Below the pieces are notes generated by a model. The model ran no database searches. It was not told where the DNA came from and was given only the letters and a program-made list of their open reading frames with translations. Made by a program: the position numbers and the translations under genes. From assembly GCA_030374765.1 (NCBI GenBank), contig JARGXX010000096.1, positions 620,001 through 684,000 of the forward strand: a stretch of 64,000 nt of DNA, given 5' to 3'. This stretch comes from Agarophyton chilense. Its lineage: Eukaryota > Rhodophyta > Florideophyceae > Gracilariales > Gracilariaceae. Below, piece by piece: positions 6,624 to 57,466 of this stretch (positions within the stretch are counted from its first letter, which is position 1; each line of letters begins with the position of its first letter).

Positions 6624-8308
6624 TCAAAGAGACGTGCGAGCACGCAGGTTCGCAAGAAGCTGTGCGCGATCACCCTCAACTTGGTCCACAGGAGAGCCCG
6701 CATCTAAGAGGAACTGCCTCAGCGGATCCAAGCCTGGATCTTCGACCGGCAATGCACTCGGTTGTTGGGTAAACCCATGAGAGGACTCTTGAGCTACTCC
6801 CGCCGCTGCGGATTGATCGACGGAAGTCGCTACGCCTGCCAGCTCTGGCTCGTCCTCGTAACCGAGTTCAGCCTCAGCTCCCGGCGCTTTCTCATACGGT
6901 TCCTCTCCGTTCTCGGATGGAGTAGCATCGTACACGTATCCAGTAAGCTGGTTCGGTTGCATGTCACGCGGGTTCTCCCGAAGAAAGCGAGCCTGCTCGG
7001 AGGTGATCAACTGGCGCGTCCAGGGGTCGTACCAAACGAAATCTCCAGCACTTGCTGTTCGTCCAGGAGAATGGTCGTAGTGTCTTGCACGGGTTCCGCG
7101 AGCGGATTGATCAGCTGGCACTCCAGACCAGTCGACACTGTCGATCAAATGCACAAGATGGAGGAAGTCGACATGGTTCGCCCGGGATCCCAGGACAAGG
7201 GAAAGATCGAGTTCTCTCGCATACTTTCGCGCTGTGGGCGACATGTACCAAACTCTAAAGGTATCATAAGCATCCCACAGGAGGAAAACGGCCATCTTGG
7301 CGATAAACTCGGTATAAACCACCGTCCAATATCCCGAGAATGGGTTGTTAACCAACGCGGACCCGATGTAAGAGATCGCCGGTGGGAGCTCCACAGGGCA
7401 ACCACGAGAACTCTCGATCGCCGCCCAATGCTCCGGAATATCGATGTAGCGCCCGAAGCGCGCGTTCCGCCGGATGCGGTCAATCTCGATCATTTGATAC
7501 GGCGCCAAATAGCCCAAACGTGATCGAGTACGACGTTCCCAACGGGAACAATCCCAATAGGGAATGTCCCGCTTTCGAAGGAAGCAGAACTCCGCACGGA
7601 GAAGAGGTTGCTAAAAGCAGAGAGCTGCATCACGCACACCGCGCACACCGCGCCAACCGCTAACATCGACTTCAACGAGTGTCTCGATATACGAGTAACC
7701 TTCACCGTCGATACGGGCTTTCCAGGTATCTAGTTCCCAGTCCTGCGGGAGGAGAACCGTACTGATGAATCGGTGAAGACGCTGGTAAATCAGCTTGGTG
7801 AACCGCGTACGGGCTTCGAACAAGGTTTCCGTTGAAAATCGCGCAATCGCTTTGTCTGGCAAAGCAATAAGGCTCGCTCAGTCGTCGCTATAAATCGCGT
7901 GTTCTGGAATACCGTCAGGGAAGTACCCACCATGTACATACTTTTGTATCAACGCATCATCGCGGATAGAAACTGGATCAAACCAGGGCGCTGGCGCGCG
8001 AAAAGTTCAACGTTGTCGAGAAGATCTCGTCCAAAGAAATCCGCAGGGTGCAGGTAGCTCCGCTGAGCACGACGAGAAGGAGCTCGAATCACACCAGCAG
8101 AGGCGACGTAAGCCGCGTTCGGCATTGGAGCCACGGTTGGCTGAGGTAACGGTACCGACCGGAATCCGGTGTACGGTGTGGGGAACGAACGGTATGGACC
8201 GAGTTTAGCAGTAGAATGCGACGCAGAACCAGCAGTGTTGGATGGAGCCCCAGAAGGCACATCCTCAGAAGAGGGCTGAAACGGGTTGGACCCGGCGTTC
8301 GGATCCAT
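6624..8308 (-). pseudogene. Antisense accessory ORF of element A (unknown protein, broken)
   Basis: Read on the minus strand from ATG at 8306-8308, the ORF encodes a Pro/Ser-rich N-terminus, then a block with the motif RDDALIQKYVHGGYFPDG, then a C-terminal block containing ELPPAISYIGS, SGYW and FLLWDAYDTFRVWY. Breaks are a frameshift near 7985, TGA at 7878-7880 and a stop at 7611-7613; 6624-7517 is an open 297-residue run. The same protein is encoded antisense in element B (37725-39581), and the two align end to end, including RAEF and RSR(L/F)G flanking the positions of the B and A stops. I recognise no domain, membrane span or catalytic signature. It lies within about 170 bp of the 3' LTR, so an antisense promoter in the LTR could drive it; that is inference. 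Confidence 0.72.
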
Positions 8309-8464
8309 CGCGAGAGATCGAGCTGAAGAGCGGTGAGGAACAAAATGCTGTTGAGAAGTGTAAGATTCGGTCGTGCGGTGAGGAATTCATGATGACGATG
8401 AGTACCCGGAACACCGGTCCGACCGCGTATAAACGCTTCTTGCGTCCCCCATGGTTCGCGCTTA

Positions 8465-8476
8465 ACGAGGGGGGTA
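8465..8476 (+). other. Polypurine tract of element A
   Basis: The run acgaggggggta lies directly before the TG of the LTR. This is the position of the plus-strand primer of LTR retrotransposons. Confidence 0.75.
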
Positions 8477-9141: not shown

Positions 9142-9771
9142 CGCGCCTTGAGAAATCTCTCGTTTGATAAGCGACTGATCGCATTGTTTGGAACGGCGCA
9201 ATGGCTCAGCATATCTGTTGTGAACATTGCATGCCATGCAATACCATCAGGAAGGCGACCGGCGACCACATATTGATTCATCAGAGCTGCATCGCGGTCC
9301 GCCGCAGGGAAAAACCGAGTTGCTCGCGCGTATAATGCAGAGTGCTGCAGGGGGTCTCGGCCGACGAAGTGCGCGTAATGTGTGAACCGATGTACGGAGG
9401 AGGACGCAGGTTGCAGAACAGCTGCTGTGGAGGAAAGATATGCAGGACCAGGGCTGGAGGCCGATTACGGCAATGGGACAGTTTGGGAGAGTGGAGCGGA
9501 GCCCCGAGGCAGCGCAGAAGTCTGCTGAAACGGAGGATTGTCGAGATCGTATAAGACGTCGGTGGATTGACCACATAAGACGTAAGGTTGCTCATCGCGA
9601 GATGTTGGATACAAGAAAAGCTTGAAGGATGGAATAGCGAGATGACCGCAAGGTGGAGTGGGAAAACACAAGTTTGTGATACGAAAAGAAGAATCCGAAT
9701 GTCCGAGAAGCGCGCTGCGATTGCTTTTATCGACAATGCGTCGCGGGGGCTCCGATCTTAACGGGGGGATA
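9142..9771 (-). pseudogene. Antisense ORF fragment of element D, cut by insertion of element A
   Basis: Minus-strand translation gives a frame with RDAALMNQYVVAGRLPDGIA at about 9222-9291. It matches the N-terminal motif of the antisense ORFs of A (RDDALIQKYVHGGYFPDG) and B (RDDELIDSYVEDGLLPGG). The match stops exactly at the LTR edge (9141/9142), so element A most likely inserted here. The rest, toward the N-terminus, is Pro/Ser-rich and frameshifted. Confidence 0.65.
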
Positions 9772-10556: not shown

Positions 10557-10569
10557 GGAGACCTGCTTA

Positions 10570-16760: not shown

Positions 16761-16762
16761 TA

Positions 16763-28787: not shown

Positions 28788-29703
28788 TGTAGAGCAACGC
28801 CCAGTTAGGGGATACTTGAAGATGCAACTCATAGAATGAGGATTGAACCCTCCAAGGGTTATGACTATGATCCCCTGTAAGGTGTGCTGAGGTGGCACTG
28901 TTTTCTGGTTAGAGTTCGCCTATGAAGTGACAATTCGGATGGCTCATGGTTGGATTGGCCCCGTGATACACGTGGCTTAATTTTGGCACCGATTTTCGGA
29001 TATTTGTTAGAACGTTGGACTTTTGGGGCCTGACAGTGGGATCTCCACGTGTATGGCCCTGAGCAGGTGTGCACTACTGTAGTGTTTAGTTAGTGGGCCC
29101 TACTCAGGGAGATGAGATCTGACAGTCCGAAGCTCAGAGTAAATGGTAACCAAGGTTGGTCTTCGATACCTTTAGAGGTTCTTCGTCGCCATCGTTTCGG
29201 CCTTACAACCCGGAACGGGCTCTGGTTAGCAACGCCTGCGTAGGGACACGACTCCACTTGGAGAGTGCCCACGTTTGGGTTCCGTGCAACCACCCCCTTG
29301 GGACCGCTCAGACGACCTGCGTGCACGATACCCCGTGGGGGTTCTGCTTACTTGTTGCGTGCTTTTTGTGTTTCCTTTCGAGGACAGGTTTTCGCCCCTG
29401 TATTGGGTTTCTTTTGTTGTTTCGCCCCTTTTCTGGTTCTCGGGTCCGGTGCCTGTTAGTGCCCGACCCTCGCTCCGTTTTTCCTCTTCGCCGGGTTTTC
29501 CTCCATTCTTTGGGATACCCATACCCATTCCCGATCCAACGGTTTCTACCCCTCACCTCCGTCGGTACTGCCGGAATCCCCCGTGGGAGTTACACCCCAC
29601 ACTACGGGTGGAACGGAGGGCTCTGTCTCTGAGTCTGCCTCCCCCAGGGAGCAAGGCTTCGAACACCTTGAGAGCACTTCCCGTCGCCGGGTTTTGCTCC
29701 ACA
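28788..29703 (+). repeat. 5' LTR of element B (916 bp)
   Basis: TGTAGAGCAACG...CTCCACA. It shares its first ten bases with family-F LTRs but not its body. Bases 29262-29333 are missing from the 3' LTR. Confidence 0.95.
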
Positions 29704-29705
29704 AG

Positions 29706-29723
29706 TGGTCTCCCGACTTAGAA
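29706..29723 (+). other. Primer-binding site of element B
   Basis: TGGTCTCCCGACTTAGAA starts two bases after the LTR. Element C has TGGTCTCTAGTCTTAGAA at the matching position. TGG would pair with a tRNA CCA end; I do not assign the tRNA. Confidence 0.7.
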
Positions 29724-29930
29724 TCCGTTCTCGGACTTTTGGGTTGGTCATCCACTTGTTGGAATATCTCTTGGAAGAGGAAGCACCGTCGTGAAGATTT
29801 GTTGTAGTGGTCCCCTTTGGAAAGGGTGGAATTGGTTTTTATTTTTGTTTTGTGTTACGTCATCCGTTCTCCGGGAATCTCGTGATCGAATTTCATCGTT
29901 ACCCCGAATTGTCGGTGTCGTGTCTGCAGC

Positions 29931-33493: not shown

Positions 33494-36467
33494 GGAGGAA
33501 GATCGAGACAAAACGGCTTTCGTGTGTCATCAAGGACTTTTCCGATTCCGGAGGATGCTTTTTGGGTTGACAAATGCCCCCGCAACGTTTCAACGGGCGA
33601 TAGACATTCTGTTGGCTCCCTTCAAGTGGAGGACGTGTCTAGTGTATTTAGACGACATTATCGTCTTCTCCAACAACCTGGATGACCACCTCGAACACGT
33701 CAGGGACGTAATGAAGATACTCCGCGACGCGGGAATCACCTTGAAACTCAGGAATTGCGAGTTTTTCACCGATTCGGTTAAGTATCTGGGTCATATCATC
33801 CGTCCCGGACCGCTTTCAATCGATGAAGTACGAGTGAAATCCTTGAAGGAAGCAAACCACCCGAAAACTCAACCGGAGTTGCGATCCTTCTTAGGTCTGT
33901 GTAACGTGTATCGCCGATTCGTCCCAAACTTTGCGGATATTGCCACCCCCCTCAACAGGCTCCTGACGAAGGGACAACCAGTTGAACTGGAACCTTTTGG
34001 CGACGCGGAAGCGTCTGCCTTCACGGCACTGGTGAATGCCGTAACATCACCGCCAATCTTGGCTCTACCCAATCCTGGGCTCCCTTACGAAGTGGACACC
34101 GATGCTAGTGCAAACCAAGTAGGGTGTGCACTGTTCCAATCCTCTGAGGATGGTGAACGTCACCATATTGGGTACTGGTCACGTTCCCTGAATGTCCATG
34201 AAAGGAACTACTCGGTCTCCGAGAAAGAATGTTTAGCCGTTGTGTGGGCCTTAGCTACACTTCGCCCCTATCTGATGGGTACTCGTTTCAAAGTCCATAC
34301 GGACCACGCATGCTTGCGTTGGCTCCTGGAGATCTCCGAACTTTCGGGCCGCCTTATGCGCTGGCTTCTCCGACTGTCGGAATTCGACTTAGAGATCCTG
34401 TACAAGAAAGGGAAGCTGAACACTCAGGCTGATGCACTATCCCGCTTGGAAACCACAGCGGAAACGGAACCCTACGAGGACGATAACATCCCATGTTTTA
34501 TGGTATCGGACCTCGAGGGAGAAGCTCAACCGCTGACGGATGATGTTTGTGACGATATAATCGTCAAGAAGAGTCTGGATTCGCCGACCGGCTCTTTTAT
34601 ACCTATCTCTCCAGAGGAGATGATACGCGAGCAACAGATCGACCCATTCTGTACACGGATTCGGGCTCGCCTCAACGGAGGATCTCTGTTACCTTTCGAG
34701 GACGACGATCAGGGTTACCTAATCAGGACCGTTGGACCTCGCCCGAGGATAGTGGTGCCGCACACCCTACAACAGAGGGTATTACACCTCACTCACTATG
34801 TGAAGGTTGGCGCCCACCCCGGGGGAAGAAACCTGTACCTCACGTTGAGAAGGGACTTTTACTGGCCGGCAATGGCATTTGATTGTTATGCCGTTAGACG
34901 GGCCTGCGCCAAGTGCGCCAAGAATGACGTCAAACTTCGGAAGCACTCTAAGAAGTTGACGCTGTTCCAGGCACGGGCTCCACTCTACTTCGTGGCCATA
35001 GACATCCTAGGGAAGTTTATCAGGACGCCCCGAGGTCATCGGTATCTGCTTGTCATTTCTGACAGATTCTCTAAGCTAACGAGAACTGTGCCGCTGAAGT
35101 GGATCACCGCCGCTACCGTCGCGCAAGCGTTCGTGGCCCATTTGGTGTTCGTATATGGACCGCCGGTGCAGTTGTTATCCGACAACGGAGGGCAATTCGC
35201 ATCAAAGTTCTTTCAGGATGTATGTCGAATCCTTGATGTAAGGAATTTATTTGTTACTACGTATCACCCTCAGGGGAATGGCCAGGTGGAGAGGTTTAAC
35301 CGCACGATACTCAAAGCTTTGAGATCGTATGTTGCGGATCACCCCAAAAATTGGGACTTGTACACAGACGCTATCACGTATGCATACAACACTCAGGTAC
35401 ATCGGGTTACATCGTTATCTCCATTCGAACTGGTACTGTCGAGGACACCGCCGCCGGTCGCCATCGAGGCTCAACCGACGCTGTCGACGTACCCGTCACC
35501 GGGATTGTACCGAGAAGCCTGTAAGGAGTGGCTTACGAAGATGGTGCCGATAGCCCGGAAAGCAATGGACAAAGCTCAACGCGCCTACAAGAAGGAATTT
35601 GACAATCGGGTTCGCAAACCTCTACCTCAGGTGGAGCCCGACGACTTCGTCTTCCTTCGAAAGGAATACTACAATCCTGAAAAGGAACGTAGGCACAAGC
35701 TTTCGCCAATTGTGGACGGACCCTATCGTGTGGTTTCTGTAGACCCGGACACGGTGGTATTGGATATCGCTAACAGCCACGAACGGATCTCCAGGGACCG
35801 CATCACACGAGCGCCCAACCCAAATGTGGAAGTGATGTCGGCACCAACGCCCTCCACAGGGGATGATTCAACGGAAGCTAACCCGTCAGGCGGAGATTCG
35901 AACACCCGCCCCGTTATACTTCCGCACTCGGAACGTGGTTTAACCGACCTACCGGAAACTTCGGATAATCCCGAACCTGGGCCCGCTCCCTCAAGGGCCC
36001 AGTCAACGAACTCTTACAGAGTTACTCCCCCACTGGAGGTAATCAAGCCTCCTGGTTCTCCGCCTAAGGAGGGGGAGAAGGACTTAGTTCCTTCGCAGGA
36101 CAATGCTTCGGCGTCAGCCAGTCGCCCTAACAGGGAATCTAGTTCTCACAGTGAGACGGCGAGCCCGACCAAGCCGGCGACAGAGAAGTCACAACCCCAG
36201 CGTATGGGTAGCGACATCACCGCCGACCCAGCCGAGCACGACGTCAGAAAAGATGACGAAACCCCGCCTAGGGAGAGTCGTGTGGAGAACTCCGCACCCG
36301 GAACGCCTACAGAGCCGACGATCACCCGCCGCCGCGGACAAGACACTGAGGTGTTGCACACTCAAACCCCGCTTTCTCGGAAACGAGCTGTGTCAGCGGA
36401 CCCGCACGGGGAAGATCTCGACGACGAGGTTGACCAAATTTGGCTCTCCGTTATGGAATGGGAATAG
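33494..36467 (+). pseudogene. pol: pol part 2 of element B: RT, RNase H, integrase, 981-codon open frame
   Basis: This open run begins with EEDRDKTAF, the direct continuation of the RT in the previous entry. The polymerase box YLDDIIVFS is intact (about 33643-33670). RNase H (VDTDASANQVGCALF, TDHACLRW, ADALSRL) and integrase follow: HHCC (HLTHYVKVGAHPGG, CAKCAKN), then DDE as AIDILGKF, LLSDNGGQF and GQVERFNRT, all catalytic residues present. A GPY/F-type segment (PIVDGPYRVV) and a long Ser/Pro/Glu tail end at TAG 36465-36467. It lacks its own start because of the upstream frameshift. Confidence 0.92.
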
Positions 36468-36630
36468 GAACTTCTATGGAGACACTGGAACCCTCAGGAA
36501 CGGGAAAGAAATGAGTGGGACCCGTCGAGGACAGCTCAGGAGAGTGCTAGCGAGTGTCGAAAGCGCCACCTCACATCCGCTTGCGGAGTGGCAACCGGCG
36601 CCCGCGCATTTATGTGGCACACGTCGAATG

Positions 36631-36730
36631 TCACCGAGCCAATCAAAAGCCTCTGACGACCAACCGTCGCGCAAACCGCCTCACCGAGCCAATCAAAAGG
36701 CTCTGACGACCAATTGTCGCGCAAACCGTC
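36631..36730 (+). repeat. Two 50-bp tandem repeats, each with a consensus CCAAT box
   Basis: Units at 36631-36680 and 36681-36730 differ at a few bases. Each contains AGCCAATCA, a full match to the NF-Y consensus RRCCAATSR. They lie between the pol tail and the chromodomain. Confidence 0.8.
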
Positions 36731-37016
36731 TCCGTCGCACGGCGCGTTGCACGGGAGCAGTCTTCGTTTCCGTAGCTCGGGTTGACGTTGAAGTCTTACC
36801 CCCCTGAGACTGGAGACGCTACCGCGTCGCGGTTTCTCAACGATCACAAAATCTAAGAACACCGTTGTTATCGGGAAGATCTCAGCTTTAAGAAGAACCC
36901 AAAACTGGGCCGTTTTGACTCCATAGACGGAAGTTATAACGTAGCCCACAGGCCACTCGGCACCGTTTGGACGAAGTGCTGAGACCCGCTCGCAACACGG
37001 AAAAGAACCCACCGGG

Positions 37017-37307
37017 GTGTGTCTAGACCCTACGTTGACACCCTCAAGGGAAGTAGAGCGTTCCAAGATAGAAGAGAAGCCCGAACAGGGAAAAGTGTAC
37101 CCGCAGGAATTCGTTATCGATCGCATCGTGCGTCACATCTACACCCCCGAGGGAGAAGTCCGCTACCAAGTCCGATGGTACGGATTCTCGCCTGATAAGG
37201 ATACAGTGGAACCCATTGAGCACCTTCCGAGGTCTAAGGTTTTACCCTATCACCGACGCGCTCGGGTAACCTTGCCTCCAAGTCTGGATCGTGCCCAAGT
37301 CGGATAA
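37017..37307 (+). pseudogene. Chromodomain of element B
   Basis: The frame is the same as that of integrase but is separated from it by stops from 36465 on. EFVIDRIVRHIYTPEGEV is followed by YQVRWYGFSPDKDTVEPI and a terminal LPYHRRAR. The YQVRWYG-type aromatic cage segment is typical of chromoviral chromodomains, which guide integration to marked chromatin. About 550 bp with tandem repeats separate it from integrase, perhaps an insertion within the integrase-chromodomain linker. Confidence 0.8.
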
Positions 37308-37484
37308 GCCACCACGGGAACTGGTGTGGATGGGACCTCGAAGTGAGGAAGATGTTATACCTCTGAAGAGGAATTGAGGAGAGTATCCCGAAAAACACGT
37401 ATTGAGAGGGAATGTCTACTGGCCCTCGGCCTAGCGCCGTTAGCCGGGGAACACGGCACCGGTTATCGGGACTGTTTATGATGA

Positions 37485-37660
37485 TGAAAAAAGGAAAAGA
37501 AGACCCAAGAAGTGGAGAAGAAGATTAAGAAGAAGATTAAGAAGAAGATTGGACCCTAGGAAGGGAAGAAGATGAAGACGAAGATGAAGAAGATCCTAAG
37601 AAAGAATGAAGAAGATGAAGTAGAAGTTAAGATCCTAGGAAGGAAGAAGAAAAGCAGTTA
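37485..37660 (+). repeat. Purine-rich GAAGAAG tract between converging genes (B)
   Basis: Almost pure A/G on the plus strand over about 170 bp, including tandem aagaagattaag units near 37515-37555. It lies between the chromodomain and the 3' end of the antisense ORF. Confidence 0.75.
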
Positions 37661-37724
37661 TGCAAATATCAGAAGTTTACTATTGTTGCCAAGCTATGGA
37701 CTCTACAATTGCCCGAAGGCGGAA

Positions 37725-39581
37725 CTACGGAAAGCCTGAGGAGGGACCCGCCCCACCTTTGGGATTCTGACCCTGATGGTACGCCGAGGCGAAAACCAAC
37801 ATCTGGCTCACATCCGTCATACCCGGTGGAATCGGAATGCCCGCGTTCACGAGGCCTTGTCGCACACTATCCGCTTGCGGAGTGGCAACCGGCGCCTGCG
37901 CAAGGGTGTTCACACCCCACCCGGGGGGAGCAGATGGACCGCCACCGGATGCATTCACCGCCGCAGCTGAGGTCGTTCCCACTGGTTGGAAGGGTGCAGA
38001 TGGCTCCACAGGGAGTACTCCACTAGGAGCTGGCATGTGGTTATCCAACGCTGGATCGTCCAGGTCTACTGGAGGCTCGTACTCGTAATCGTCGGTATAA
38101 ATGAACCCCGTCGGGTGTCCCACCGGCATCGGTCGAGGCGAGTCAATCAGCGCCCGTGCTTGCGCCGCACTAATGCGAACCCCTTCGAAGGGATTGTAAT
38201 AGACCCAGTTACCGGAGCCCGGATCGTACCGGCCAGGAGACTTGTCTCGCGCGGATCCTTCCCCTGCGGGCTGATTTTCCACTGGAACTCGATTCCATTG
38301 GGTGTTGTCGATCACGTCCAAGATTGGATACAGGTCCTGCACGCTGCTGGCCGAACCCAACGCTGGGACAAGGTCGATCTGACGCATGATGGTCCGTAGC
38401 ATCGGAGGAATATACCAGATACGGAAATGGTCATGAGCATCCCAGAGGAGGTGCGCCGCTACGTGGGCTGACCACTCGGCTGCAACGAAGGCCCAGTATC
38501 CCGAGTTCGGGTCGTGCATCAAACGAGACCCGATATAGTACATGCATGGGGGCAGTTCAGCAAAGCACCCTCGATGGACCTCGACCTTACTCCACCAAGC
38601 TGGAAGGGGCACGAATCGCCCAACCTTCGCCGTGTTACGGATACGCTCCAGTTCCACGTGAGGATACGGGACAAGGAACCCGAAACGGGAGCGCGAGCGG
38701 CGCTCGAAGCGCACGCGTCGATCGAACTCATACTAGGTAAACTGCCGTTGAAGGTACCTGAACTCAGCCCGAAGGATGGGACGACTCCATTGGAGCATAT
38801 CTTCTCGGAGAGGAAAACCCGGTCCGCGGAACTCGGCTTCGGGAAAGGCTGCCAGGTTATCCCCGTAGGAGACCTCACCGTACGTGCGGTAATAGGCGAC
38901 ATCGAACCCGTACTCCGGGGGAACCAGATGGTCAAAGCGTGACCTCTCCAATCGCTGGTAGGCCAGAGCCGCCATCGCTGCGCGCGCCTTTTCCAGGGAC
39001 TCCCCGCGACCGCGGTATAGATACTGAGGCTCTATGGCTACCTGCGCCCTCCAATCGGGAGAACGTACAACCTCGACAGATAGGCCACCCGGCAATAAGC
39101 CGTCCTCCACGTAGGAGTCGATGAGCTCATCGTCGCGAACCGCTGTCGGATGGAACCACGGAGGGCGGGAATATATCACCGGACCGGTAAGGGGACTCCA
39201 CCTTCGAAAGGATTCGTTTGAGATCCAACCTCTGGAGTTTGCTACTAAGGGCATCGCATGAGCGGAGTTCCACGCTACCGCGTTAATGTCCAAATTCTCC
39301 TGAGGATGTCGGTTGCTCGCCGAGGCGGAAGGTTCGGTACCTGACGGAGCCGCATCCAAACCGGAGAAATATCCACCCTGCTGGGGAGCTTCGTTTTCCG
39401 CCGGCGCGGAGGCCGATGGCCCCGAGAGTGCGTTGAGGACGTATGGGTTCATTCCCTTGAGAGGGCTGGTTGAGACTGCTGTTGCGAGAAGTTGCTTATC
39501 GCCGAAAGTCGGAGGAGTAGAAGAAAGTTGTACCGATGTGCCGGTTTTGTGGCGATCCTCAAAAGTGGTGAAGGACCCCAT
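37725..39581 (-). pseudogene. Antisense accessory ORF of element B, about 618 codons with one TAG
   Basis: ATG at 39579-39581 (the frame opens after a TAA a little upstream); TAG at 38733-38735; the same frame then continues to the stop at 37725. Apart from that one codon the frame is open throughout, and codons on both sides align with element A. The N-terminal part is Ser/Ala/Pro-rich; motifs include RPPWFHPTAVRDDELIDSYV, RGCFAELPPCMYYIGS, SGYW, HLLWDAHDHFRIWY and NWVYYNPFEG. No transmembrane or zinc motif and no known family is recognised. It starts about 80 bp from the 3' LTR and converges on pol. Confidence 0.78.
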
Positions 39582-39649
39582 TGGGAGAGAAGTATGTATA
39601 GTGACCGGAAAGCGAGACACCCGCGGCTCGGAATGTTCTTCCTCGTCTT

Positions 39650-39662
39650 AGGGAGGGGGAGA
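39650..39662 (+). other. Polypurine tract of element B
   Basis: agggagggggaga directly before the TG of the 3' LTR. Confidence 0.88.
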
Positions 39663-40514
39663 TGTAGAGCAACGCCCAGTTAGGGGATACTTGAAGATGC
39701 AACTCATAGAATGAGGATTGAACCCTCCAAGGGTTATGACTATGATCCCCTCTAAGGTGTGCTGAGGTGGCACTGTTTTCTGGTTAGAGTTCGCCTATGA
39801 AGTGACAATTCGGATGGCCCATGGTTGGATTGGCCCCGTGATACACGTGGCTTAGTTTTGGCACCGATTTTCGGATATTTGTTAGAACGTTGGACTTTTG
39901 GGGCCTGACAGTGGGATCTCCACGTGTATGGCCCTGAGCAGGTGTGCACTGCTGTAACTAGTAGAGTTTAGTTAGTGGCCCCTACTTAGGGAGACGAGAT
40001 CTGACAGTCCGAAAGCTCAGAGTAAATGGTAACCAAGGTTGGTCTTCGATGCCTTCAGAGGTTCTTCGTCGCCATCGTTTCGGCCTTACAACCCGGAACG
40101 GGCTCTGGTTAGCAACGCCTGCGTAGGGACACGACTCCACTTGGCGTGGGGGTTCTGCTTACTTGTTGCGTGCTTTTTGTGTTTCCTTTCGAGGACAGGT
40201 TTTCGCCCCTGTATTGGGTTTCTTTTGTTGTTTCGCCCCTTTTCTGGTTCTCGGGTCCGGGGCCTGTTAGTGCCCGACCCTCGCTCCGTTTTTCCTCTTC
40301 GCCGGATTTTCCTCCATTCTTTGGGATACCCATACCCATTTCCGATCCAACGGTTTCTACCCCTCACCTCCGTCGGTACTGCCGGAATCCCCCGTGGGAG
40401 TTACACCCCACACTACGGGTGGAACGGAGGGCTCTGTCTCTGAGTCTGCCTCCCTCAGGGAGCAAGGCTTCGAACACCTTTAGAGCACTTCCCGTCGCCG
40501 GGTTTTGCTCCACA
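39663..40514 (+). repeat. 3' LTR of element B (852 bp)
   Basis: Same ends as the 5' LTR. It lacks the stretch corresponding to 29262-29333 and has a small insertion (around 39955). Confidence 0.95.
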
Positions 40515-46923: not shown

Positions 46924-47370
46924 TGTGAACGAGCGATGATAATGGCTGAGCCCTGTAAGCCACCGGGCCCTGAAGGATCTTGCAGGGGACACGTGTACGG
47001 GTCGACCTCAGGTGGACTCATGTAGATTCTTAATTTGACTTAATTAGTGTAATAGATTAACACTACAGTGCCAGGTAGATCTCAGCGCCTTGCAAATACT
47101 ATTTACTTGGCTCCAGTGACGCTTCTACCTTGGAGTACGGTAGGCACCGTTAGGATACTAAATAACCCGCTTTGGTATATTAATTCCACCCTTTGGTCTT
47201 CAAGCCACCGTTTCCATAGCTCTGACCTGTACGAGTACGTAGTAAACGCCAGCCCGTTGCACCAAGTACTCTGGGAGTGCCGCCGTCAAGGATTCGAACC
47301 TTAGGACCCCCTCTACCACGCTACCACCGGTCGAGACCCGTACGCTGACTTAACCCGTCATTGCGTTACA
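46924..47370 (+). repeat. 5' LTR of element C (447 bp)
   Basis: TGTGAACG...GCGTTACA. The tRNA-like cassette described in the findings lies at about 47286-47335 on the minus strand. Confidence 0.93.
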
Positions 47371-47373
47371 TTT

Positions 47374-47391
47374 TGGTCTCTAGTCTTAGAA
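47374..47391 (+). other. Primer-binding site of element C
   Basis: TGGTCTCTAGTCTTAGAA starts three bases after the LTR; it agrees with the PBS of element B at 14 of 18 positions. Confidence 0.68.
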
Positions 47392-47446
47392 ATCTCAAGG
47401 AATAATTGAACGGACCACTGGAACAAAGAATTATTCGGATTCTAAC

Positions 47447-48112
47447 TGTAGTATCCGCTCTAACGGAGAGAGCAGACACCTGCGACAGCGTTCGGACTGC
47501 CGATGGGTCGCTTGCGGCGAAGGAAAAGGGGTGGTAGAGCTACAAAACCAGCGAGCTGGAAGTGGGGTGTAAGGCCACTACTCGCCAGCGAGGGTGAACA
47601 GTGCAACTGTAAAACGTTGATGGAGCGTAGGCACGAGACGGTTCGTGAAGTGGTTGGGGGCTGACTATCTATTATAGCTTGTCCGGATCTCTGGTTAAAG
47701 AATCCTAAGCGAGGAACAGAATAGTCATGATGCCCATGTTGTCTCCTTTACTTGGAGTCGGCGCTCACCTCTGGTACCCTATATACTGTGTGCCAGGGTG
47801 AGTGCCCAAATAATACGTAAATAATACCCAGTGGTCAGCCACTTAGCCAAACCAATGTATGGGTACGGTCCCTAATGGACGTCTAGCTACAATGGGTAGT
47901 AAAACCAGCCACGTTGATCGCCACTACATGCGCCGTTGCAAGCCACTCCACTCGTGATACCACGTGTCCCAACAATATACCCTGCCTCCTGGCATCCTAC
48001 GCGGTGTGCCGTTTCATATCACAATGCTGATGATATCACTCACTTATGAGTTCCAACCGCGACTTCGCGAAAAACCAACCCATCGGATTCCCCAACATTG
48101 TAGAATACTACA
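47447..48112 (-). repeat. Solo LTR of A type, inserted in the leader of element C
   Basis: 666 bp, the reverse complement of the LTR at 8477-9141, with ends TGTAGTAT and ATACTACA. It is flanked by a perfect CTAAC duplication (47442-47446 and 48113-48117). It separates the PBS from gag of element C. Confidence 0.95.
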
Positions 48113-48357
48113 CTAACCTTTGGTTTAATTCCCTAACAGACCCGAAGTACAGCAGCAACCTCCATTATGGATGCAGAAAACACACCCAACCGACCCTACC
48201 ATATGACTCCTACGGCAGGACGAAGTGCGACTACAACGCCAGCGATGTCGCATGACCTCATGTTGATACTGCTAGCGACCGAAGGAGCACAAAGAGCCAG
48301 CCCCAAGAAGTACTGACCCCAATGGATAACCCTTAAAGGATTCGCCGAGAACCCGCG

Positions 48358-50260
48358 GTGGCAGCGCGTTTACGAGACCGCCTCACCAGGGCCACCTCTA
48401 GGCCAGCAACACCTCAAGGAGAAACCCCCCGGACCGAAGGAATTCGAGAAAACCTGTCCGCAGGTCCTGCCGACCTTCTTTGGCCCCGTCTCCGTGAGCT
48501 CTGCTCAACGCACGTGGATTCCATTACGGACGTGCGACTTGCTACGGCGATCTCTGACCATACGGATCACCTCATCGCACGATTCGTCCTTAAGGTATTG
48601 GAGCCTGACTTATTCATAGACTCCCTCCTAGAGGCCGTTCAAGGTGCTGTCACCCGCCAGGCAGGCAATTTGGTCCCTAGGACCTCCCCCTCACAAATAA
48701 ACGATCCTGTCTCCATATGGAAACCCCCTACTAAACCCCCAGGAGCGGCGAAATTATCCGCCCCTCGCCGGGAATATCATCAGGAAAACCCCGTGGTGGG
48801 CCAATCTAGGAGCAGAAGAGAAGCTCCGCGTCGAGATGAGATACAGGTTGCCCATAAGGAGAATCCAAGGGAGGGACAAGCGAAGAGCAGAAGAAAAGCT
48901 CCGCGTCTAGAAGAGAGACCTCTTGCCCCACCCGACGGATTATACGAGGTACAGCGACCTCAGGGCTCGGTCGGATCTGATAGAGAGATCCATCCTTTAG
49001 GTCCCTACTTCGCTAGAAAGAAGAAAAGAAGTAACCACAGTACAAAGAAGGACAGAAGGAGTAAGAGAAGAGACCACTCGGACACGAACGATTCCGAATC
49101 GGCCTCAACCGAAACGGCGGATTCGGAATTGGAAGAGGCTTTCATTCGAAACCTCAGACCACTGACAACCACAAACGAACTTTTCCTTAAGGTTCTAGAC
49201 TACCGGAATTACCGGCTGGCCGACGGGTGCGTGAAATATTCTGGTTCGGTGGCTCGCAGAGTCGCCAGATGGGCTAAACGGATGCAACTAACCATTCCGG
49301 AGAAGTTCTCAGGTTCCGATCCCATTGCTGTCCTTAGGTTTTTCAGTTTGTTCCGTACGGCCTGCGATCACAACGGTGTCCACGAGGGCGCCGATCTGTA
49401 CCTTTTCCAATTCTTCCTTACAGGACAGGCGCGTGACCCAGTGGTTTCGAAGATATCTGGCACAACTGACCTCGTGGATGCTCAAGACCATGAGCTTCTC
49501 AGGTCATACTCTCAGGTTGTTATTACTTCGTGGAAACTTACGCCACGGATGAAGTTATAATGGATGCCCACCGGGAAGTAATATCCTTTAGACAAAGCTC
49601 CAACATGAAGGAATCGGCTTTCGCAGAAGACCTATGAAAGAAGGCTTACCGATGTGGAAACGTGTTCTCCGAAGGACGGCTTAAGCGCCACTTCATCACT
49701 GGATTGCTCCCTGTCATTGGGACACATGTGCGCAATTACCACACGTAAAACCCACAATACTCCTTCCGAAGGCTCGTTACCTACGCTGAGGGTTATGGAA
49801 AAACCTACAGGACTTCCAGGCGCGACGCTAGTTTTACCAGAGGACACGCAACTCCATTGCCTAAACCTAACCAAGCCCATTTGGTTAGCTCCAGGGAGTC
49901 GGACATGGATGCTTCACTCATTCACACCGATTCGAGAGATGTCCTTGCCCTCAGTTTCAGTGCTCCTCCGTCCGGGCCCCGATCATACACCTCCCAATGA
50001 ACTACAGCGACCACTGGACCACCTACACCTAAGTATTTTCCCTTTCCGCCCCGCAAGGACGTTTTTGTCCGCTCCCCAAGGGCCTGCTTCCTCTGCCTGT
50101 CACTGACCCAACCATGTGACTGTACGGGGTATCTGCCTGAGGACGCACGAAAAACCCTTTTAGCCCTAAGGGAAGAGAATTACCGGGTGCGGAGATCCGA
50201 AGGAATGTATAACAGAGCACAGAAATGAACCACAGGGACCCCTGGAAGCTCACGCTATAC
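48358..50260 (+). pseudogene. gag: gag of element C, frameshifted
   Basis: The first open run (48358-49560) has no ATG; it opens just after a TAA and begins at GTG, so the start codon seems lost. It contains a Lys/Arg/Ser-rich middle and the capsid-like block (TNELFLKVLDYRNYRL, AVLRFFSLFRTACDHNG) that aligns with gag of A and B. After a frameshift near 49525 the match continues in pieces (CGNVFSEGRLKRHFITGLLP). A Cys-containing segment near 50080-50115 sits at the zinc-knuckle position but lacks a clean CCHC pattern. Confidence 0.8.
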
Positions 50261-50509
50261 CACGCCTCCGGACACTCCGATCAAAGTCCCACAGGTCCAC
50301 GCCATTGTAGATCCTACGGACGACCCCGTGGAAGAACCCTATTCTCAGGAAGAATCGGCAACCCCATCGCAAAACTCCTAGAGGGACGACTCGAGGCAAA
50401 TCCTCCATCTTTAAGCCCCTGCCTCAACCAATTGGACGGTCATGGGACGAAGAGCTCTTCACCTCCCAATACAAACCACCCACCATGAACCACTCAGGAT
50501 GAACCACAA

Positions 50510-53056
50510 TTGGAACACAGTAACGACCCCGTCTGTATCCTCAGGAAAGAGAACTATAAAGATCGAGTAACCGTAGGAATTCGTTCCAACCACTCTCGAG
50601 TGACCAGAGCTGTGTTGGACACAGGCGCTGGCCCCACCTTGGTCCATCCCAAGCTGCTCCCACTGCGTTGGCAAGATTTCGTTCAGGCCAAGAAGACCCC
50701 AAGGATTACCGATGCGTCTCGTAGACCAACGCACATTAAAGGGATAGTACCACTTTACCTCCAGGCAGGACAATTCAAAGTCCGCACATTGTTTCTTGTA
50801 TGTCCTAACTTGGGCGCCGAGGCAATCCTAGGGACCTCATTTATCGACCGATACATTAAGGCAATTTATCCATGCCTTAGGGAAGTCGCGTTTTACCGCG
50901 CACCTTCCATCTCCATAACTGGTTCAACTCCAGGGCCAGAAGCTAACCGCAAATGGGCGGTTGTCTCCGAAAACAGGAAGTCCAATAAGGTTCGCCTGTC
51001 AAGGGCTATAACGATACCGCCGATGAGCCAAATCGCTGTATCAGTCCATTCACAGTTCTCAGGTCCCGTAACGATTCAGAACCACCCGAAAACGGTTCTG
51101 AAGCACCTTACCTTGATGTCCAGTGGAGTAATGGACATCCACCCCAACAGGTCCTTTTTGGTCACAATCAGCAACTTCCGAGATAAACCCGTACGGTTTC
51201 CTAAAGCTAAAGTGATTGGTATCACTCTACCAACGCCCGTGGCCATTATGGAAGCCCAAATGGATAGCCTTGAGAAGCCAACTCCCGACAAGGACGTCGA
51301 CTCTTGGGAGGGGACGGTCGCCATCGGCGAAGGATTCGTATCCTATGAGCTCCAGGGTCTTGATCTCCTCAGAGAATACCAGGCCATGCGGACAGGTAGA
51401 TTGGGGACAATCAGAGCCATTACACACCGCATTGACCTTCAGAATGATGCTAGACCACCGTTCCAGCACCCATACTGTACAGGCCTTAAAGGTAGGGAAA
51501 TCGTCGCCGACCAGATGGACAAGATGCGCAACGCTCAATTCATAGAGCCAGCACCTCCAAACCAATCGAAATGGGCAAGTCCCCTTGTTCTCGTGGCGAG
51601 AAAAGATGGCTCCGTCTGGTTCGGTGTCCACTACAGGAATCTGAACGCAGTAACCAAGAGGGACTCATACCCGATACACCGCGTGGATTACTGTCTGGAT
51701 TCCTTAGGCGAAGCTGTCCTATTTACCACACTGGACGCTAACTCGGGATATTGGCAAATCCCTTCGTCCGAAGACGCGAGAGCGCTGACAACCTTTACCA
51801 CCCATGAAGGTCTGTTCAGATTTACTCGCATGCCCTTTGGTTTGAAGAATGCACCAGCCACGTTCCAACGGGTAATGGACATTATACTGTCCAAAGTCAA
51901 ATGGAAGTTCGCCCTGGTCTATTTGGATGACGTTATAATCTTCTCACGGACCGTAACGGAGCACTTTCGCCACGTGAAGAAGGTGCTAACAATCCTACAG
52001 GACGCTGGAGTAACACTGAAGCTCCGAAAATGCGCTTTCTTCCAGGCCTCAGTGGACTATCTCAGTCACGTCGTTCTCCCAGGAAAGGTAAAGGTGGCTA
52101 CACGGACAACGAATGCGATTCGCCAGGCTGAGCCTCCTAGGACCCACACGGAACTAAGATCCTTCGTGGGCTTTTGCAACGTTTACCGACGGTTCGCCCA
52201 ATGGTTTGCCCAGATCTCGGCCCCTCTCAACGCGATGCTGAAGAAGGGAACACCTTCGGAGATCGAAGCCCTTACGGACGACCAGTATGAAGTATTTCAG
52301 ACTCTAAATGACAAATTGCTGAACCCACCCATATTGGCCTTACGAAAGCCCAATACGCCTTTCGTCCTGGATACAGATGCCTTTGATGTCCAAGTGGGTT
52401 GTGCACTGCTACAAGAACAGAAGTCAACGAAAGACTATCGACCTATTGGGTACTGGAGCACAACGCACACCAACGCGAAGCGAACCTAAAGTACGTCCGA
52501 AAAGGAAGGTCTGGCCATCGTATGGTCCGTATTGACACTCCGTCCGTACCTCGAGGTACCCAGGTTTACCATTAGGACAGACCACGACTCACTCCGCTGG
52601 CTACTCAATATGACCGATGCATCGAGTCGCCTTGCTAGGTGGCGCTTCAGGCTGTCAGAATATGACTACGAGATAACCTATAGGACAGGCATCAAGCACC
52701 AGGCAGCAGATGCCCTGTCGCGAATCATCACCGACGGAACTGATGATAAGCCATTGGACGACCTAATTCCTACCTCCTTTACAGATGATGGACCTCAGGA
52801 CTACACGGAAACAGATGACCTTATGGGCAAAGTGCAATCGGAAGACCCTGAGATAAAAGAGAACGAAGTACACCTATTGGAATGGGAAACAGTACCGCCC
52901 AATTGGGCACCACCTCAGGTTAACGCGATAGACCCGCAGAAAAAAGAGCTCCTCCCTATAACTATTGAGGAACTCCTACAGGCGCAAGGTCGAAGACGAG
53001 TACTGCAAGGAAACGGCCGAACTAGTAAAACCCCCAGGATGCCTATTCGACTATGA
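50510..53056 (+). pseudogene. pol: pol part 1 of element C: protease, RT, RNase H (one stop)
   Basis: An open run of 659 codons (50510-52489) has protease LDTGAGPT, RT with WASPLVLVARKDGSVWF, TLDANSGYWQIP and an intact YLDDVIIFS, then the start of RNase H (LDTDAFDVQVGCALL). TAA at 52487-52489 is a plain nonsense change, since the next codon onward continues RNase H (STSEKEGLAIVW, TDHDSLRW, ADALSRI) in the same frame. The frame shifts near 52985, before integrase. Confidence 0.9.
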
Positions 53057-54521
53057 CAGATTTCGACTACTATGTCGCCGCTCACCGCTGAATGGCGCAC
53101 TCCAACGGGTAACACCAACTTCGCTAAGGGCGCGATTCCTATACCTCGCCCACTTCCCCCGCTTGGCTGGCCATCCTGGAGGCCGACGAATGTATCAGAC
53201 TCTAAGGAAGTTCTTCTACTGGCCACTAAGGGCGCAGGACCTTTGGAAAACCGCACGGAACTGTGCATCGTGCGCACAGATCCGACGGTCTCGCGCCAAC
53301 CATCAGGCCAAACTGAAGCTCTTTCCCGTCTCAGGTCTAATGGAATTTGTCTCAATCGATATACTTGGGCTTTTGCCTAACTCGTCCCATGGGAAACTGT
53401 TTGTTTTGGTTAAAACGGATAGGTTTACCAGACTTACCCGAGCCCTACCCCTTGGAAAGAAAACGGCTACGGATGTCGCTGCGGCCTTCTTGTCTCACTG
53501 GGTATATCCATATGGCATGCCACTGTACCTCCTTACGGATGTCGGCAGCCCGTTTGTATCCAAAGTTTTCTTGCATGTCTGTGCTGCCTTAGGTATCAAA
53601 CACATGACCATCACGGCGTAACACCCGCAAACCAGTGGCCAAGCCGAACGCTTCAACCGCACGCTTCTGGACCGATTGGCGCATTACGTTTTGGAGCACC
53701 AATTGGAGTGGGACGAATACGTTGAACCACTGGTTAAAGCCTACAACACGCAGGTGCACGCTTCCACATGGACAACGCCTTTCGACTGAACGCTAACGAA
53801 AGCGCCCCCGCCGATAGCTGTTGACCTTCAGGAGTCTATCATACCCCAGGAAATATCCGAAGGGATGACTCCTACCCAGGTGAAGCGCTACTCGCGCCGA
53901 AGCATTGACCACATTCTCCATTCGGCCAGAACTGTATTAACCAAAGCCCAACGGCGCTACAAATGCAATTTCTACAAAGCCGTTTGGAACACACTGACCT
54001 TTGAAAAAGGACATCTGGGTTACCTGGACCGGCCACCGATGGACAGTGAGGAACTCGAGGACATTACGCGGAAGGTCTTAACCCGCTCTACGGGACCATA
54101 CAAAGCCCTTAAGGCCAATGATCACACCATAAGTTTGCTCATTAACGGCCTACAGGTCACTGTGTCTATTGACCGCGTGACACTAGCTCCCAGTTCCTCC
54201 GGACCACGAACGTCCCAGCCCCCTGGCCCAACGGAAGCACCACGACCTCAGGTCAACACTCAAGTCTCCACACCCCCTAAGGCAGTTCCCGAGGACTCGA
54301 CTAGCCCCATGGACACGATGGTCAAGGCCAACTACTATGTCCCATCGCTCCCAACTGACTCCAATGGATTCGCCCCTCTGGGCCACACTCTCCTTTCGGA
54401 GAATGAACACCAACCGGAATATGTGATTGAGCACATCATCTCCGCCGGTATGGGAGAAGATGGAACTATGCGCTATCGCGTCCGTTGGTTCGGCTACACA
54501 CCTGAGAAAGATACTTGGTAA
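52965..54521 (+). pseudogene. int: pol part 2 of element C: integrase and chromodomain (two stops)
   Basis: HHCC region at about 53130-53280 (LAHFPRLAGHPGG, CASCAQI). The core has SIDILGLL, then LLTDVGSPF and QAERFNRT, so D, D and E are present. TAA at 53619-53621 and TGA near 53787 interrupt one frame. The chromodomain (YVIEHIISAGMGEDGTMRYR, then WFGYTPEKDTW) closes the frame at 54519-54521. It is about half the usual chromodomain length, so it is probably truncated by the stop. Confidence 0.87.
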
Positions 54522-54574
54522 TAGCCTCAAACCATTCCTGCTAATTTTATCCCCCGCTATTAGCAAAGAGTCAG

Positions 54575-54720
54575 CCCCTCGGAGCGCAGCCTTTAGAAGG
54601 GGGCACCCAATTGGCGCAGAATCAGCACTTCGGAGCGCGGCCTTCAGGAGGGAGCAATCATTGGTCCAAATAAGCCAACCATTGGCCCGAATAATCCAAC
54701 CATTGGCCCGAATAATCCCA
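54575..54720 (+). repeat. Tandem repeats with CCAAT (ATTGG) boxes downstream of pol (element C)
   Basis: Two units of about 54 bp (cggagcgc...gcag) are followed by repeated ccaaccattggcccgaataa units near 54676-54716. At least three inverted sites match RRCCAATSR (for example GGCCAATGG). Confidence 0.7.
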
Positions 54721-55139
54721 AAACGCCTCTCAAACCGCTTCCCGACACGACGGTTCGCCGGAGCACGACGACTCGTCGAAGCTCCGGCATCAGGGAACAA
54801 ATTCAGTCCTTGGAGACACCTGAGGAAAACCCAAGACGCTCTCAAGATGGGGCGCCGTCCCGTGGCACGCACATTGGAGATACAAGAACGACCTTGGGAA
54901 AGCACAATCAGTAATTTATTCGACAACTAACAGAGGCCAAACAGCTCTCGATATGACCTCAAGGTTCGCAGAAGCGCTGCGGACACCACCAGGACTCACT
55001 GGTGCGGCGCAGGAGCAGCTCTGTCGTCCTCATTGGCACGTGCAGGAGCGAAACCGGGACTAGGGTCACCCGAGGAGCAAACTGGACAACCCGAACCGGC
55101 CCCAGTGAGCCGAGGACGCTTCTTCGGCGGAAATTCTCC

Positions 55140-56962
55140 TCAGAAGCTATTGTTACCATCGGAAAACTGCCAGTCACTCAAATTGAGACCATATCGGGCA
55201 TCCAAGTTGGCGGTAACACTCTGGTACATCGCCTGCGAATTCTGCTGCATGATATTGACCATGACAGCCTTCAGGTCCTGACCCTGTTGGACAACCGCGG
55301 TGTAGCGAGCCGAAGGACCAGCCCAGGAGCAGGCTTCCCTCAGAACTGTTGCAATTTCCATCGAGGCCGTGATACAAACGGTACGGCAGACATGACGGAG
55401 ATCCGTGGCGGCAGCAGTGACCGAAGCAAGAAAGTGGACCAACGGCGAGGACGGAGCGATGTCGACGCCCCCGGTGGACGTCTGAGCAAGTGCCTCGCCT
55501 ATGGGACTTTCGGTTTCGACAGTAACCTCGCCAGGAGGAAGAATCACTTGGGCGACGGGCAGTTCATACGAGAGCTCATCCTGAAGAGCAGCGCCTGGAA
55601 GAGCTGAAGGAGGAGAACCAGTCGGCAATACAACGGCGGACTCTACCGGGGGACGAACGCCCTCCATGGGTAAGATGAAGGGATCTTCACCAAAGGATTC
55701 TCCGTCGGACATACCAGCAGGAACTAACGGCGCGGCTTCCACATCAGGTTCGAAGCAAAGAGGATCGAAACCAAGGCCTTCGGATAATAGTGGGGCACAT
55801 GACGCTTCGGAATGTCCGATGGTTGATTTCTCAAGGGCTTGGCGGAATAGGCACGGGCGTGGTCCAGACCCTGCAGATGCAGCGGAATTGGCGTGATTGA
55901 GTCGGTATTCCAGTCATACCTAAGGAACCCGGAAGTTTTGGCCCACTCCATTTGTAGGACATGATCCAAAAGGGCCTTGGTTTCCTTGACGTCGAACTGA
56001 GACCCACGGACGATGTTTTGTATGCCCAGGTTCCTTAGGAAACGGATCATGATGTCCGGGAGTGAGATTAGGCGACCTCGAGGACCGGGTATGTTCTCAT
56101 CATACCACACCCTCCAATCCTTCGAACGGACATTACCCCGGATTCCATATTTCACAGTATCCAGAAAGTCCATAAGGGACATCACGCCGAACTCGACAAA
56201 GAGCACCTTCCAGGACAGCCAGGACCTTCGGTCATGGTCAGCGTCCATGAGTTGGGACGAGTGGTACGCCACCACGGACGGCGTGGGAACCAGAAGGAGC
56301 GGCGAGACACGCCAACACACGGCCCATTGGTTCTAATCCTCATGGGGCAGGGAAAGGTACAACGGAAGGCGTTTGTCGGAGCTCATGTCGTGGAACTCCA
56401 CTTGTTGCCAACAAAAGGAGAACCCCAAGGATTAACGCAGACGACCATCGGGCTCGTGCATCTCGTTCCAATAGACCCGGTTGGACATCCAGAATAAATG
56501 GTCGTATGGTGGCGGGAAGCACATAAGCCCCAAGAGGTTGTGACCAGCCGCGGGAAAGAGCACATGAGGTGAGATGAAGTCCGTTTACAGGTCCGAAAGT
56601 TGTTTGTTCACCGTGAACTGGTAGTCGGTTTCTTCTTCGCAGCGGACGTACGGCATGTCCGCTTGGAAGAGTGTGCGACATCGCGTCGCCGAGCGCGGAT
56701 CCACAGGACAATGCAACCATCGGTGATACCACGAGACGCTGCGCGCGTTCTTGCTGCCCCTCCGGAAGTCGGTTATCTTTGCAAACCTTCGGGCGTCGAG
56801 ATAGATGTGGCAAAACCTTTGGTATTCTTCCACTGAGGACGGCAGAACGGCATGACGCACCGCCCTCGTGTTTCTTCCGATTGTATGGTCATAGCGGTCC
56901 CCCGGATGCTCGTAGGCCACTTGGTATCCCGAGGAGCTCCTCGCTGGATTGTCTGAGGTCAT
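55140..56962 (-). pseudogene. Antisense accessory ORF of element C, frameshifted
   Basis: Minus-strand open pieces follow each other: 56962-56585, 56320-55724 and 55742-55140. The middle piece has KDWRVWYDENIPG, then LLDHVLQMEW and GFLRYDWNT. In order and spacing these match FRIWYIPP, LDVIDNTQW and GNWVYYNPF of the element B antisense protein. The last piece is Pro/Ala/Thr-rich like the A and B C-terminal tails. The N-terminal piece is too diverged to align with confidence. It occupies the same place and strand as in A and B. Confidence 0.62.
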
Positions 56963-57466
56963 GGTACCGCTGATCCCAGGGTGGTCCGCCGGGAATTAAA
57001 TGGAAGAGCCGGTGGAGACGACATAGTCCAAAAAAAGTACGGCGTATCTGGCGGGCTTATAAGGGGATTTCGGCATCGTGCGCAACCAATGGAAAGGTAC
57101 CACGAGAAAAAGACAAAGTAACGGTGCGGACCGGAACGGACTGACAGGCGTGAACCACGGTGGACGAAGCGCGAAGGGTCGCCAAGGGAAGAACGGAGAC
57201 GAAGGGAGAACCCAATGGGCCGTCCCGGCCACGCGACGCGAGGGATACGCCGGGCGATGTACCTATGCCCAGTGCTCACGGCGCGTGAAAGTTTCAATCC
57301 TTAGGCAAATTAACTTCCGTTCGGCGCCAATGGTCTGCTCACGCATCCCCGCAGGCGGTGACGACGCGACGTACCGCCGCAGCAAATGGTACCGGGAGCA
57401 AGGAAGTGCACGCGTCCCCTGGAGCAGTTATGAAACCATCTGGACTTCGCCGTGAGGGTCGAATCC
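56963..57466. other. Leader/promoter region of the antisense ORF in element C
   Basis: About 500 bp between antisense ORF start and PPT with no coding alignment to A or B. It recurs nearly unchanged, inverted, at 63478-64000, so it is a real part of the family. Confidence 0.55.

What the first reader, a model, noticed from the sequence alone, without database searches (positions are those of the whole stretch)
6624..57466. A chromovirus lineage with a conserved long antisense gene between pol and the 3' LTR
Elements A (6624-8308), B (37725-39581) and C (55140-56962), and the remnant D (9142-9771), all carry a minus-strand ORF in the same place. A and B proteins align end to end over about 600 codons, C shares the order of central motifs (WYxxP/WYDEN, LLxxV...W, YxxF/YDW), and D keeps the RDxxLxxxYVxxGxLPxG motif. 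Conservation of protein motifs across copies whose DNA has diverged suggests past selection. Antisense extra ORFs are known in some plant Ty3/gypsy groups, but I recognise no family for this protein and no described algal case.
Basis: partly seen in the sequence, partly recalled or inferred. Interest (0 to 1): 0.88.

Follow-up and report, generated by a model that had tools for sequence, protein, structure and literature searches.

The report
Backward gene in red-algal retrotransposons
Several jumping-gene families in what appears to be a red seaweed genome carry a related extra gene that is read backwards from the rest of the element and shows signs of being kept by natural selection; similar backward genes are known in plants and a fungus, but this protein matches none that could be tested.

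Summary
Ty3/gypsy elements with chromodomain-like integrase ends carry a long antisense gene between pol and the 3' LTR. Window copies are broken, but the 79.8-Mb genome holds uninterrupted frames: 618 aa from ATG in B, and 611 (A), 748 (C) and 652 (new lineage E) codons stop to stop. A, B, D, E and F are one protein family; C is a distant member by profile comparison (E 2e-10). The named relatives come from two red algae, Gracilariopsis chorda and Agarophyton chilense. By coordinates the gene follows at least 84 of 150 listed B-family pol copies, and 4 of 4 apparent misses that I fetched.

Selection acts on the antisense frame. In C, changes private to one of 20 copies look nearly neutral (replacement:silent 810:344); changes shared by 3 or more, or 5 or more, do not (95:119, 14:49). 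In A the signal is weak (p 0.02) and pairwise dN/dS is near 1.

No useful Pfam, PHROG or PDB match; the plant antisense domain PF04195 stays below its cut-off in this genome. Best reading: an accessory, probably nuclear, regulatory protein made independently of gag-pol; its expression and activity are untested. Antisense genes at this place are known in plant Retand/Grande/RIRE2 and fungal Boty, so this is a new variant of a known kind.

The parts
28788..40514 (+). Element B: LTRs 28788-29703 and 39663-40514, 5-bp duplication AATGT on both sides
   Evidence: 16 substitutions in 845 LTR bases; LTRs begin TGTAG and end ACA
29931..31931 (+). B gag-position ORF, 666 aa, no Pfam match at E 0.001
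32273..36467 (+). B pol (RT, RNase H, integrase), frame broken in this copy
   Evidence: intact sister L003 shows a weak chromodomain, 18.2 bits, below the cut-off
37725..39581 (-). B antisense gene, one internal stop
   Evidence: at least 142 related places in the genome
2701..5627 (+). A pol pieces (RT, RNase H, integrase); the element begins before the window
6624..8308 (-). A antisense gene, shifted frame and stops
   Evidence: at least 135 related places in the genome
8477..9141 (+). A 3' LTR
9142..9771 (-). D: remnant of a further antisense gene, apparently cut by the insertion of A
   Evidence: 41% over 73 aa to A
46924..57925 (+). Element C: LTRs 46924-47370 and 57481-57925, GCCAC on both sides
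   Evidence: 52 substitutions in 445 LTR bases
50489..54518 (+). C pol pieces: protease-like, RT, RNase H, integrase, partial chromodomain (20.2 bits, below the cut-off of 25.1)
55140..56962 (-). C antisense gene, broken; intact-frame sisters extend further towards the LTR
   Evidence: at least 150 related places in the genome

Best explanation
A true protein-coding accessory gene of red-algal chromovirus-like retrotransposons, carried antisense between pol and the 3' LTR and retained by selection while the elements replicate. Shown: position, orientation, presence in most or nearly all examined B-family copies, homology among lineages, and purifying selection on the antisense frame (strong in C, weak in A, too few changes in B). 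Inferred: it is transcribed from a promoter in or next to the 3' LTR, on an mRNA convergent with the genomic RNA, so it can be made when gag-pol is not. The product (about 560-680 residues; a conserved core of some 300 residues between low-complexity tails) is probably soluble and most likely works in the nucleus as a regulator of the element's own expression, of its silencing, or of integration. My estimates: 0.93 that it is a selected coding gene, about 0.5 that its role is nuclear and regulatory; the confidence given is for the whole statement.
For: At least 84 of 150 listed B pol copies have a listed antisense match downstream on the opposite strand, plus 4 of 4 fetched misses. Uninterrupted frames in four lineages. 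A-B antisense frames align at E 4e-83 against 5e-25 for the best sense frame. C: private replacement:silent 810:344; shared by 3 or more of 20 copies 95:119 (p 1e-12), by 5 or more 14:49 (p 3e-14), also outside the part used as search query; shared codon positions 1/2/3 are 51/39/127. Seventeen invariant columns in ten sequences. A basic motif of the nuclear-signal type, PPKKR, near the C-terminus of three C-branch proteins (the label is recalled).
Against: A: pairwise dN/dS 0.62-1.16; shared against private only p 0.024 at 3 or more copies and p 0.073 at 2 or more, and no signal at 5 or more. B: only 8 shared changes. My motif scan found no nuclear-type motif in A, B or most relatives. No transcript, peptide, structure or domain evidence. 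C-branch proteins have borderline hydrophobic stretches (maximum 1.58-2.08 over 19 residues), so a membrane role is not excluded there.
Confidence: 0.55

Rival explanations
1. The conserved thing is the antisense RNA, not the protein: an antisense transcript pairs with the genomic RNA and sets copy number or triggers silencing, and the open frame is incidental.
For: The genes are convergent, so overlapping transcripts are likely. A review passage on plant elements raises the same possibility.
Against: Shared changes in C favour silent over replacement changes in the antisense frame, and protein similarity spans lineages with 35-52% residue identity. RNA pairing needs no reading frame.
Confidence: 0.07
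2. An envelope-like or other structural particle protein that happens to lie in reverse orientation.
For: It sits at the usual env position, and the C branch has borderline hydrophobic stretches.
Against: Antisense orientation; no clear membrane segment in A, B, P0001 or P0003; no similarity to the gag-position protein of B; no Pfam match.
Confidence: 0.12
3. A host gene captured once by the elements, or a neutral passenger without a role in their life cycle.
For: No similar element protein was recognised, and the G. chorda and A. chilense relatives are filed as ordinary or unnamed gene products.
Against: A passenger would not show fewer replacements among older shared changes. At least five lineages carry the gene at the same place. 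Whether the relatives in other species lie inside elements was not tested.
Confidence: 0.1
4. The sense-strand frame opposite the antisense gene (271 aa in many A copies) is the real gene and the antisense frame is its shadow.
For: It is open in many of the A copies held, and sense frames also align between A and B (E 5e-25 and 5e-13). In A at 2 or more copies the codon-on-codon sense frame gives p 0.0003 after conditioning.
Against: The antisense frame aligns longer and better (468 aa, E 4e-83). The conditioned signal in A also appears outside the sense frame (p 0.017) and vanishes inside it at 3 or more copies (p 1), and two changes shared by 3 or more copies are stops in the sense frame inside it, against none in the antisense frame. 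Codons TTA, CTA and TCA, which give stops in that frame, are rare in the gene (6 of 89 Leu and Ser codons in A), which keeps it open. In C, given antisense-silent changes, sense replacements are not depleted (22:87 shared, 67:253 private, p 1).
Confidence: 0.03

Closest known systems
Antisense additional ORFs between pol and 3' LTR (aORF-3R) of plant Ty3/gypsy elements: Retand, Grande gene23, RIRE2 (PMC7264820 and PMC11963269; passages seen)
   Same: Place, orientation, presence in most copies of a family, unknown function, suspected nuclear or regulatory role
   Different: Retand's typical TRP28 domain (PF04195) does not reach its cut-off in this genome. Retand is a non-chromovirus lineage, whereas these elements have chromodomain-like ends. 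The host group is different
Boty elements of Botrytis cinerea with antisense gene brtn (Zhao et al. 2011: paper not held, seen only as mentions in PMC7264820, PMC8365987 and PMC4227169)
   Same: Antisense extra gene in an element with an integrase chromodomain
   Different: No Botrytis protein was among the hits, but those searches reach only relatives sharing short exact words
Antisense gene HBZ of HTLV-1 (mentioned in passages of PMC11963269)
   Same: Antisense accessory gene of an LTR retroelement with a nuclear product
   Different: Analogy only; I made no comparison of the proteins

Membership tests
LTR retrotransposon with conserved antisense ORF between pol and 3' LTR (aORF-3R kind) | ORF on the opposite strand between pol and the 3' LTR | tested here: met
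   B and C in the window with both LTRs; lineage F with integrase and chromodomain upstream
LTR retrotransposon with conserved antisense ORF between pol and 3' LTR (aORF-3R kind) | Present in most copies of a family | tested here: met
   At least 84 of 150 listed B pol copies; 4 of 4 misses fetched, chosen for long pol frames, also carry it, one with a deletion. Not measured for A and C
LTR retrotransposon with conserved antisense ORF between pol and 3' LTR (aORF-3R kind) | Antisense transcription | not testable with these tools
   No transcript data
Plant Retand TRP28 antisense proteins | Transposase_28 domain, PF04195 | tested here: not met
   No member of A3 matches it at E 1. In the whole genome one match, E 0.05, 20.2 bits, below the cut-off of 26.2
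Boty / brtn | Homology to the brtn protein | not testable with these tools
   Sequence not held; paper not held
Chromoviruses | Chromodomain at the integrase end | tested here: inconclusive
   PF00385: lineage F 40.6 bits, above the cut-off of 25.1; E 22.8, C 20.2, B copy L003 18.2, all below it; none found in A
Chromoviruses | Reverse transcriptase in the chromovirus clade | not tested
   Only similarity of pol to Ty3 Gag-Pol, E 7e-74; no tree built
Retroviral env | Same orientation as gag and pol | tested here: not met
   Opposite strand in A, B, C, E and F
Retroviral env | Membrane-spanning segment | tested here: inconclusive
   Hydropathy only: 0.9-1.4 in A, B, P0001-P0004, P0006 and P0007; 2.15 near the P0005 N-terminus; 1.58-2.08 in the C branch

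The most novel reading that the evidence does not exclude
An ancient protein family, among named organisms found here only in red algae, that counters host silencing or steers chromodomain-guided integration. It would be expressed from its own antisense promoter before gag-pol, so that these elements carry a self-contained control gene which arose independently of the plant TRP28 and fungal brtn genes.
Probability: 0.25. Interest if true: 0.75.

Novelty: new variant of a known kind. Interest (0 to 1): 0.52.

Why it matters
Antisense accessory genes of LTR elements have been described in plants and a fungus without an established function (passages). A further host group, with a protein not matched to the plant domain, suggests that such genes were gained more than once, which argues for a general need. 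This genome offers many copies with uninterrupted frames, several diverged lineages and a measurable selection signal, so comparison of lineages can point to the functional surface. Relatives are filed in public sets as hypothetical or unnamed proteins of G. chorda and A. chilense, so the family may also help to clean red-algal annotation.

Tried and rejected
Fungal host, suggested to me by the NB-ARC/WD40 gene: dropped when relatives were named from two Gracilariaceae. C unrelated to A/B: BLASTP gave nothing, but profiles do. Gene missing from part of the B family: 66 of 150 pol matches had no listed partner, and two of the 150 had a listed match on the same strand about 5 kb away; the 4 fetched of the 66 all carry the gene, so list truncation is the likely cause. 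Sense frame as the real gene: tested and judged a shadow. Relation to the gag-position protein: none. C-terminal two-helix motif as a known small domain: only weak Pfam matches, best E 0.055. Weak PDB matches judged chance: E 0.99, 1.2, 0.027. Phages, viral contigs and genome contigs: no relatives. Literature: searches listed no paper on antisense genes in red-algal retrotransposons; these cover open-licence PMC papers only, I saw at most the top 20 of each listing (199 papers, 789), and I read passages, not whole papers. Selection on pol was not compared. In one search the query 5299-5619 was in the wrong frame for A's integrase and says nothing; one search scanned the right frame and listed no chromodomain.

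Sampling limits: the copies used for selection are the best-scoring ones of capped lists, 8 of 142 (B), 30 of 135 (A) and 20 of 150 (C), because only those were handed out as loci; they are not random.
Full report
What is there. The window lies in an unnamed 79.8-Mb, 135-contig genome. Three Ty3-type elements carry a minus-strand gene between pol and the 3' LTR. B is bounded by LTRs at 28788-29703 and 39663-40514, with AATGT on both sides and 16 substitutions in 845 LTR bases. C is bounded by LTRs at 46924-47370 and 57481-57925, with GCCAC on both sides and 52 substitutions in 445 bases (ends adjusted by eye from the printed sequence). A begins before the window and ends with its LTR at 8477-9141; remnant D resumes at 9142, which fits A having inserted into D. 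The window copies of the antisense gene are all broken. Copies with uninterrupted frames exist in the genome: 618 aa from ATG in B, and stop-to-stop frames of 611 codons in A and 748 in C and 652 in E. Shuffles of the same sequences never exceeded 390 codons.

How many and where. Genome searches scored 142 (B), 135 (A) and 150 (C) places out of 1395, 1503 and 705 candidates, so true numbers may be higher. Of 150 matches to the end of B's pol, 84 have a listed antisense match downstream on the opposite strand, 82 of them about 1.1-1.3 kb away and one each near 1.4 and 2.0 kb. Of the 66 without one I fetched four, chosen for long pol frames; all four carry the gene, one with an internal deletion. 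Of the 75 matches scored (of 1893 candidates) with relative P0001, 43 hold no stop, 28 one and 4 two; these are the best-scoring copies, not a random sample. A search with the distant relative P0006 led to two further lineages: E (L063, 39% to B) and F (L064, 51% to A and 38% to B); a third fetched place, L065, is close to A (90%). In F the gene follows an integrase end with a chromodomain above Pfam's cut-off. In E it follows a sense frame that ends in a chromodomain-like stretch just below the cut-off, in which no other pol domain was found.

What the protein is. A, B, E, F and P0001-P0007 form one family; 17 columns are invariant in the ten sequences of A6 (P0001-P0007, B, A, E), all in the central part. 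C and its relatives form a second branch, joined by profile comparison over 201 columns, E 2e-10. Named relatives are a hypothetical protein of Gracilariopsis chorda and three unnamed products of Agarophyton chilense, both Gracilariaceae; this is also why I take the host to be a red alga, which I did not confirm with a marker gene (the rRNA search did not complete). Nothing matched in Pfam, PHROGs or PDB at useful E-values. A, B, P0001 and P0003 lack a convincing hydrophobic segment; the C branch is borderline. Three C-branch proteins carry a short basic motif of the nuclear-signal type (label recalled); A and B do not.

Is it selected? Pairwise dN/dS against one intact copy is 0.34-0.52 in B (7 copies), 0.62-1.16 in A (29) and 0.27-0.71 in C (19), with the low values of C at the highest dS. 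Many differences between young copies arise after insertion, so I separated changes seen in one copy from changes shared by several. In C the private changes are close to a spectrum-matched null (replacement:silent 810:344, 0.88 of the null) and shared ones are not: 319:222 at 2 or more copies, 95:119 at 3 or more (0.37 of the null), 14:49 at 5 or more of 20. The effect holds outside the part used as genome query (p 1e-5, 6e-9 and 2e-9 at 2, 3 and 5 or more); inside it is absent at 2 or more (p 0.16) and present at 3 and 5 or more. In A it is weak: 38:28 at 3 or more against 571:227 private, p 0.024; 134:72 at 2 or more, p 0.073; no signal in the few changes at 5 or more. In B there are only 8 shared changes.

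Which strand? The antisense frame wins the six-frame comparison of A with B, E 4e-83 against 5e-25 for the best sense frame. In C the opposite strand shows no constraint of its own after conditioning. In A the conditioned tests are mixed: the codon-on-codon sense frame, which is open for 271 codons in many A copies, gives p 0.0003 at 2 or more copies. That signal is not special to the stretch of the sense frame (p 0.005 inside, 0.017 outside), is gone inside it at 3 or more copies (p 1), and two shared changes are stops there. Rarity of TTA, CTA and TCA codons in the antisense gene (9 of 96 Leu and Ser codons in B, 6 of 89 in A, 17 of 114 in C, 4 of 83 in E) is enough to explain an open shadow frame (the link is inference).

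How it may work. The start codon lies 81 bases (B), 168 bases (A, for the ATG at 8308) or some 520 bases (C, for the ATG at 56962) from the 3' LTR; in A and C other upstream ATGs are possible. The simplest source of its mRNA is a promoter in or beside the 3' LTR. The mRNA would be convergent with the genomic RNA and independent of it. That suits a regulatory protein made early or in low amount. I take a nuclear regulator as most likely, by the C-branch motif and by analogy with plant gene23 and HBZ, whose nuclear location I saw only in passages. Transcription, location and activity are all untested.

Known or new. Antisense genes at this place are a known kind: plant Retand, Grande and RIRE2, and fungal Boty. 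Retand's PF04195 domain does not reach its cut-off in this genome. Homology to brtn could not be tested. The searches named under Tried and rejected listed no report for red algae, within an open-licence library only. I therefore call it a new variant of a known kind.

Noticed in passing
18435-21725 (-): A 1096-aa ORF with NB-ARC and WD40 repeats; about four 129-bp units at 18793-19313 are 88% alike, i.e. recently homogenised or expanded WD40 blades in an NLR-like gene of what appears to be a red alga.
   Followed up: no
24065-27246: Two long ORFs on opposite strands (614 and 672 aa) overlap in GC-rich DNA with tandem repeats at 25401-25963. The minus-strand one has no Pfam match; the plus-strand one was not scanned.
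   Followed up: no
27801-28527 and 57926-58654: An inverted repeat pair of about 730 bp, 82% alike; the right arm starts at the base after C's 3' LTR. Its nature was not examined.
   Followed up: no
47447-48112 (-), 40730-41178 and 63029-64000 (-): An A-type LTR lies alone and inverted inside C, a C-type LTR lies alone right of B, and a second C-family copy in inverted orientation begins at the right edge and runs past it.
   Followed up: partly
12001-14000: Strong strand asymmetry: GC skew 0.34 and AT skew -0.18 in a GC-poor stretch.
   Followed up: no
6708-7520 (+): A sense-strand frame of 271 codons opposite the A antisense gene, open in many of the A copies held; tests favour a shadow of codon use.
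   Followed up: yes
L063:1-1761 (+): In lineage E the sense frame before the chromodomain-like end is a long low-complexity, proline- and serine-rich stretch with no integrase match.
   Followed up: no
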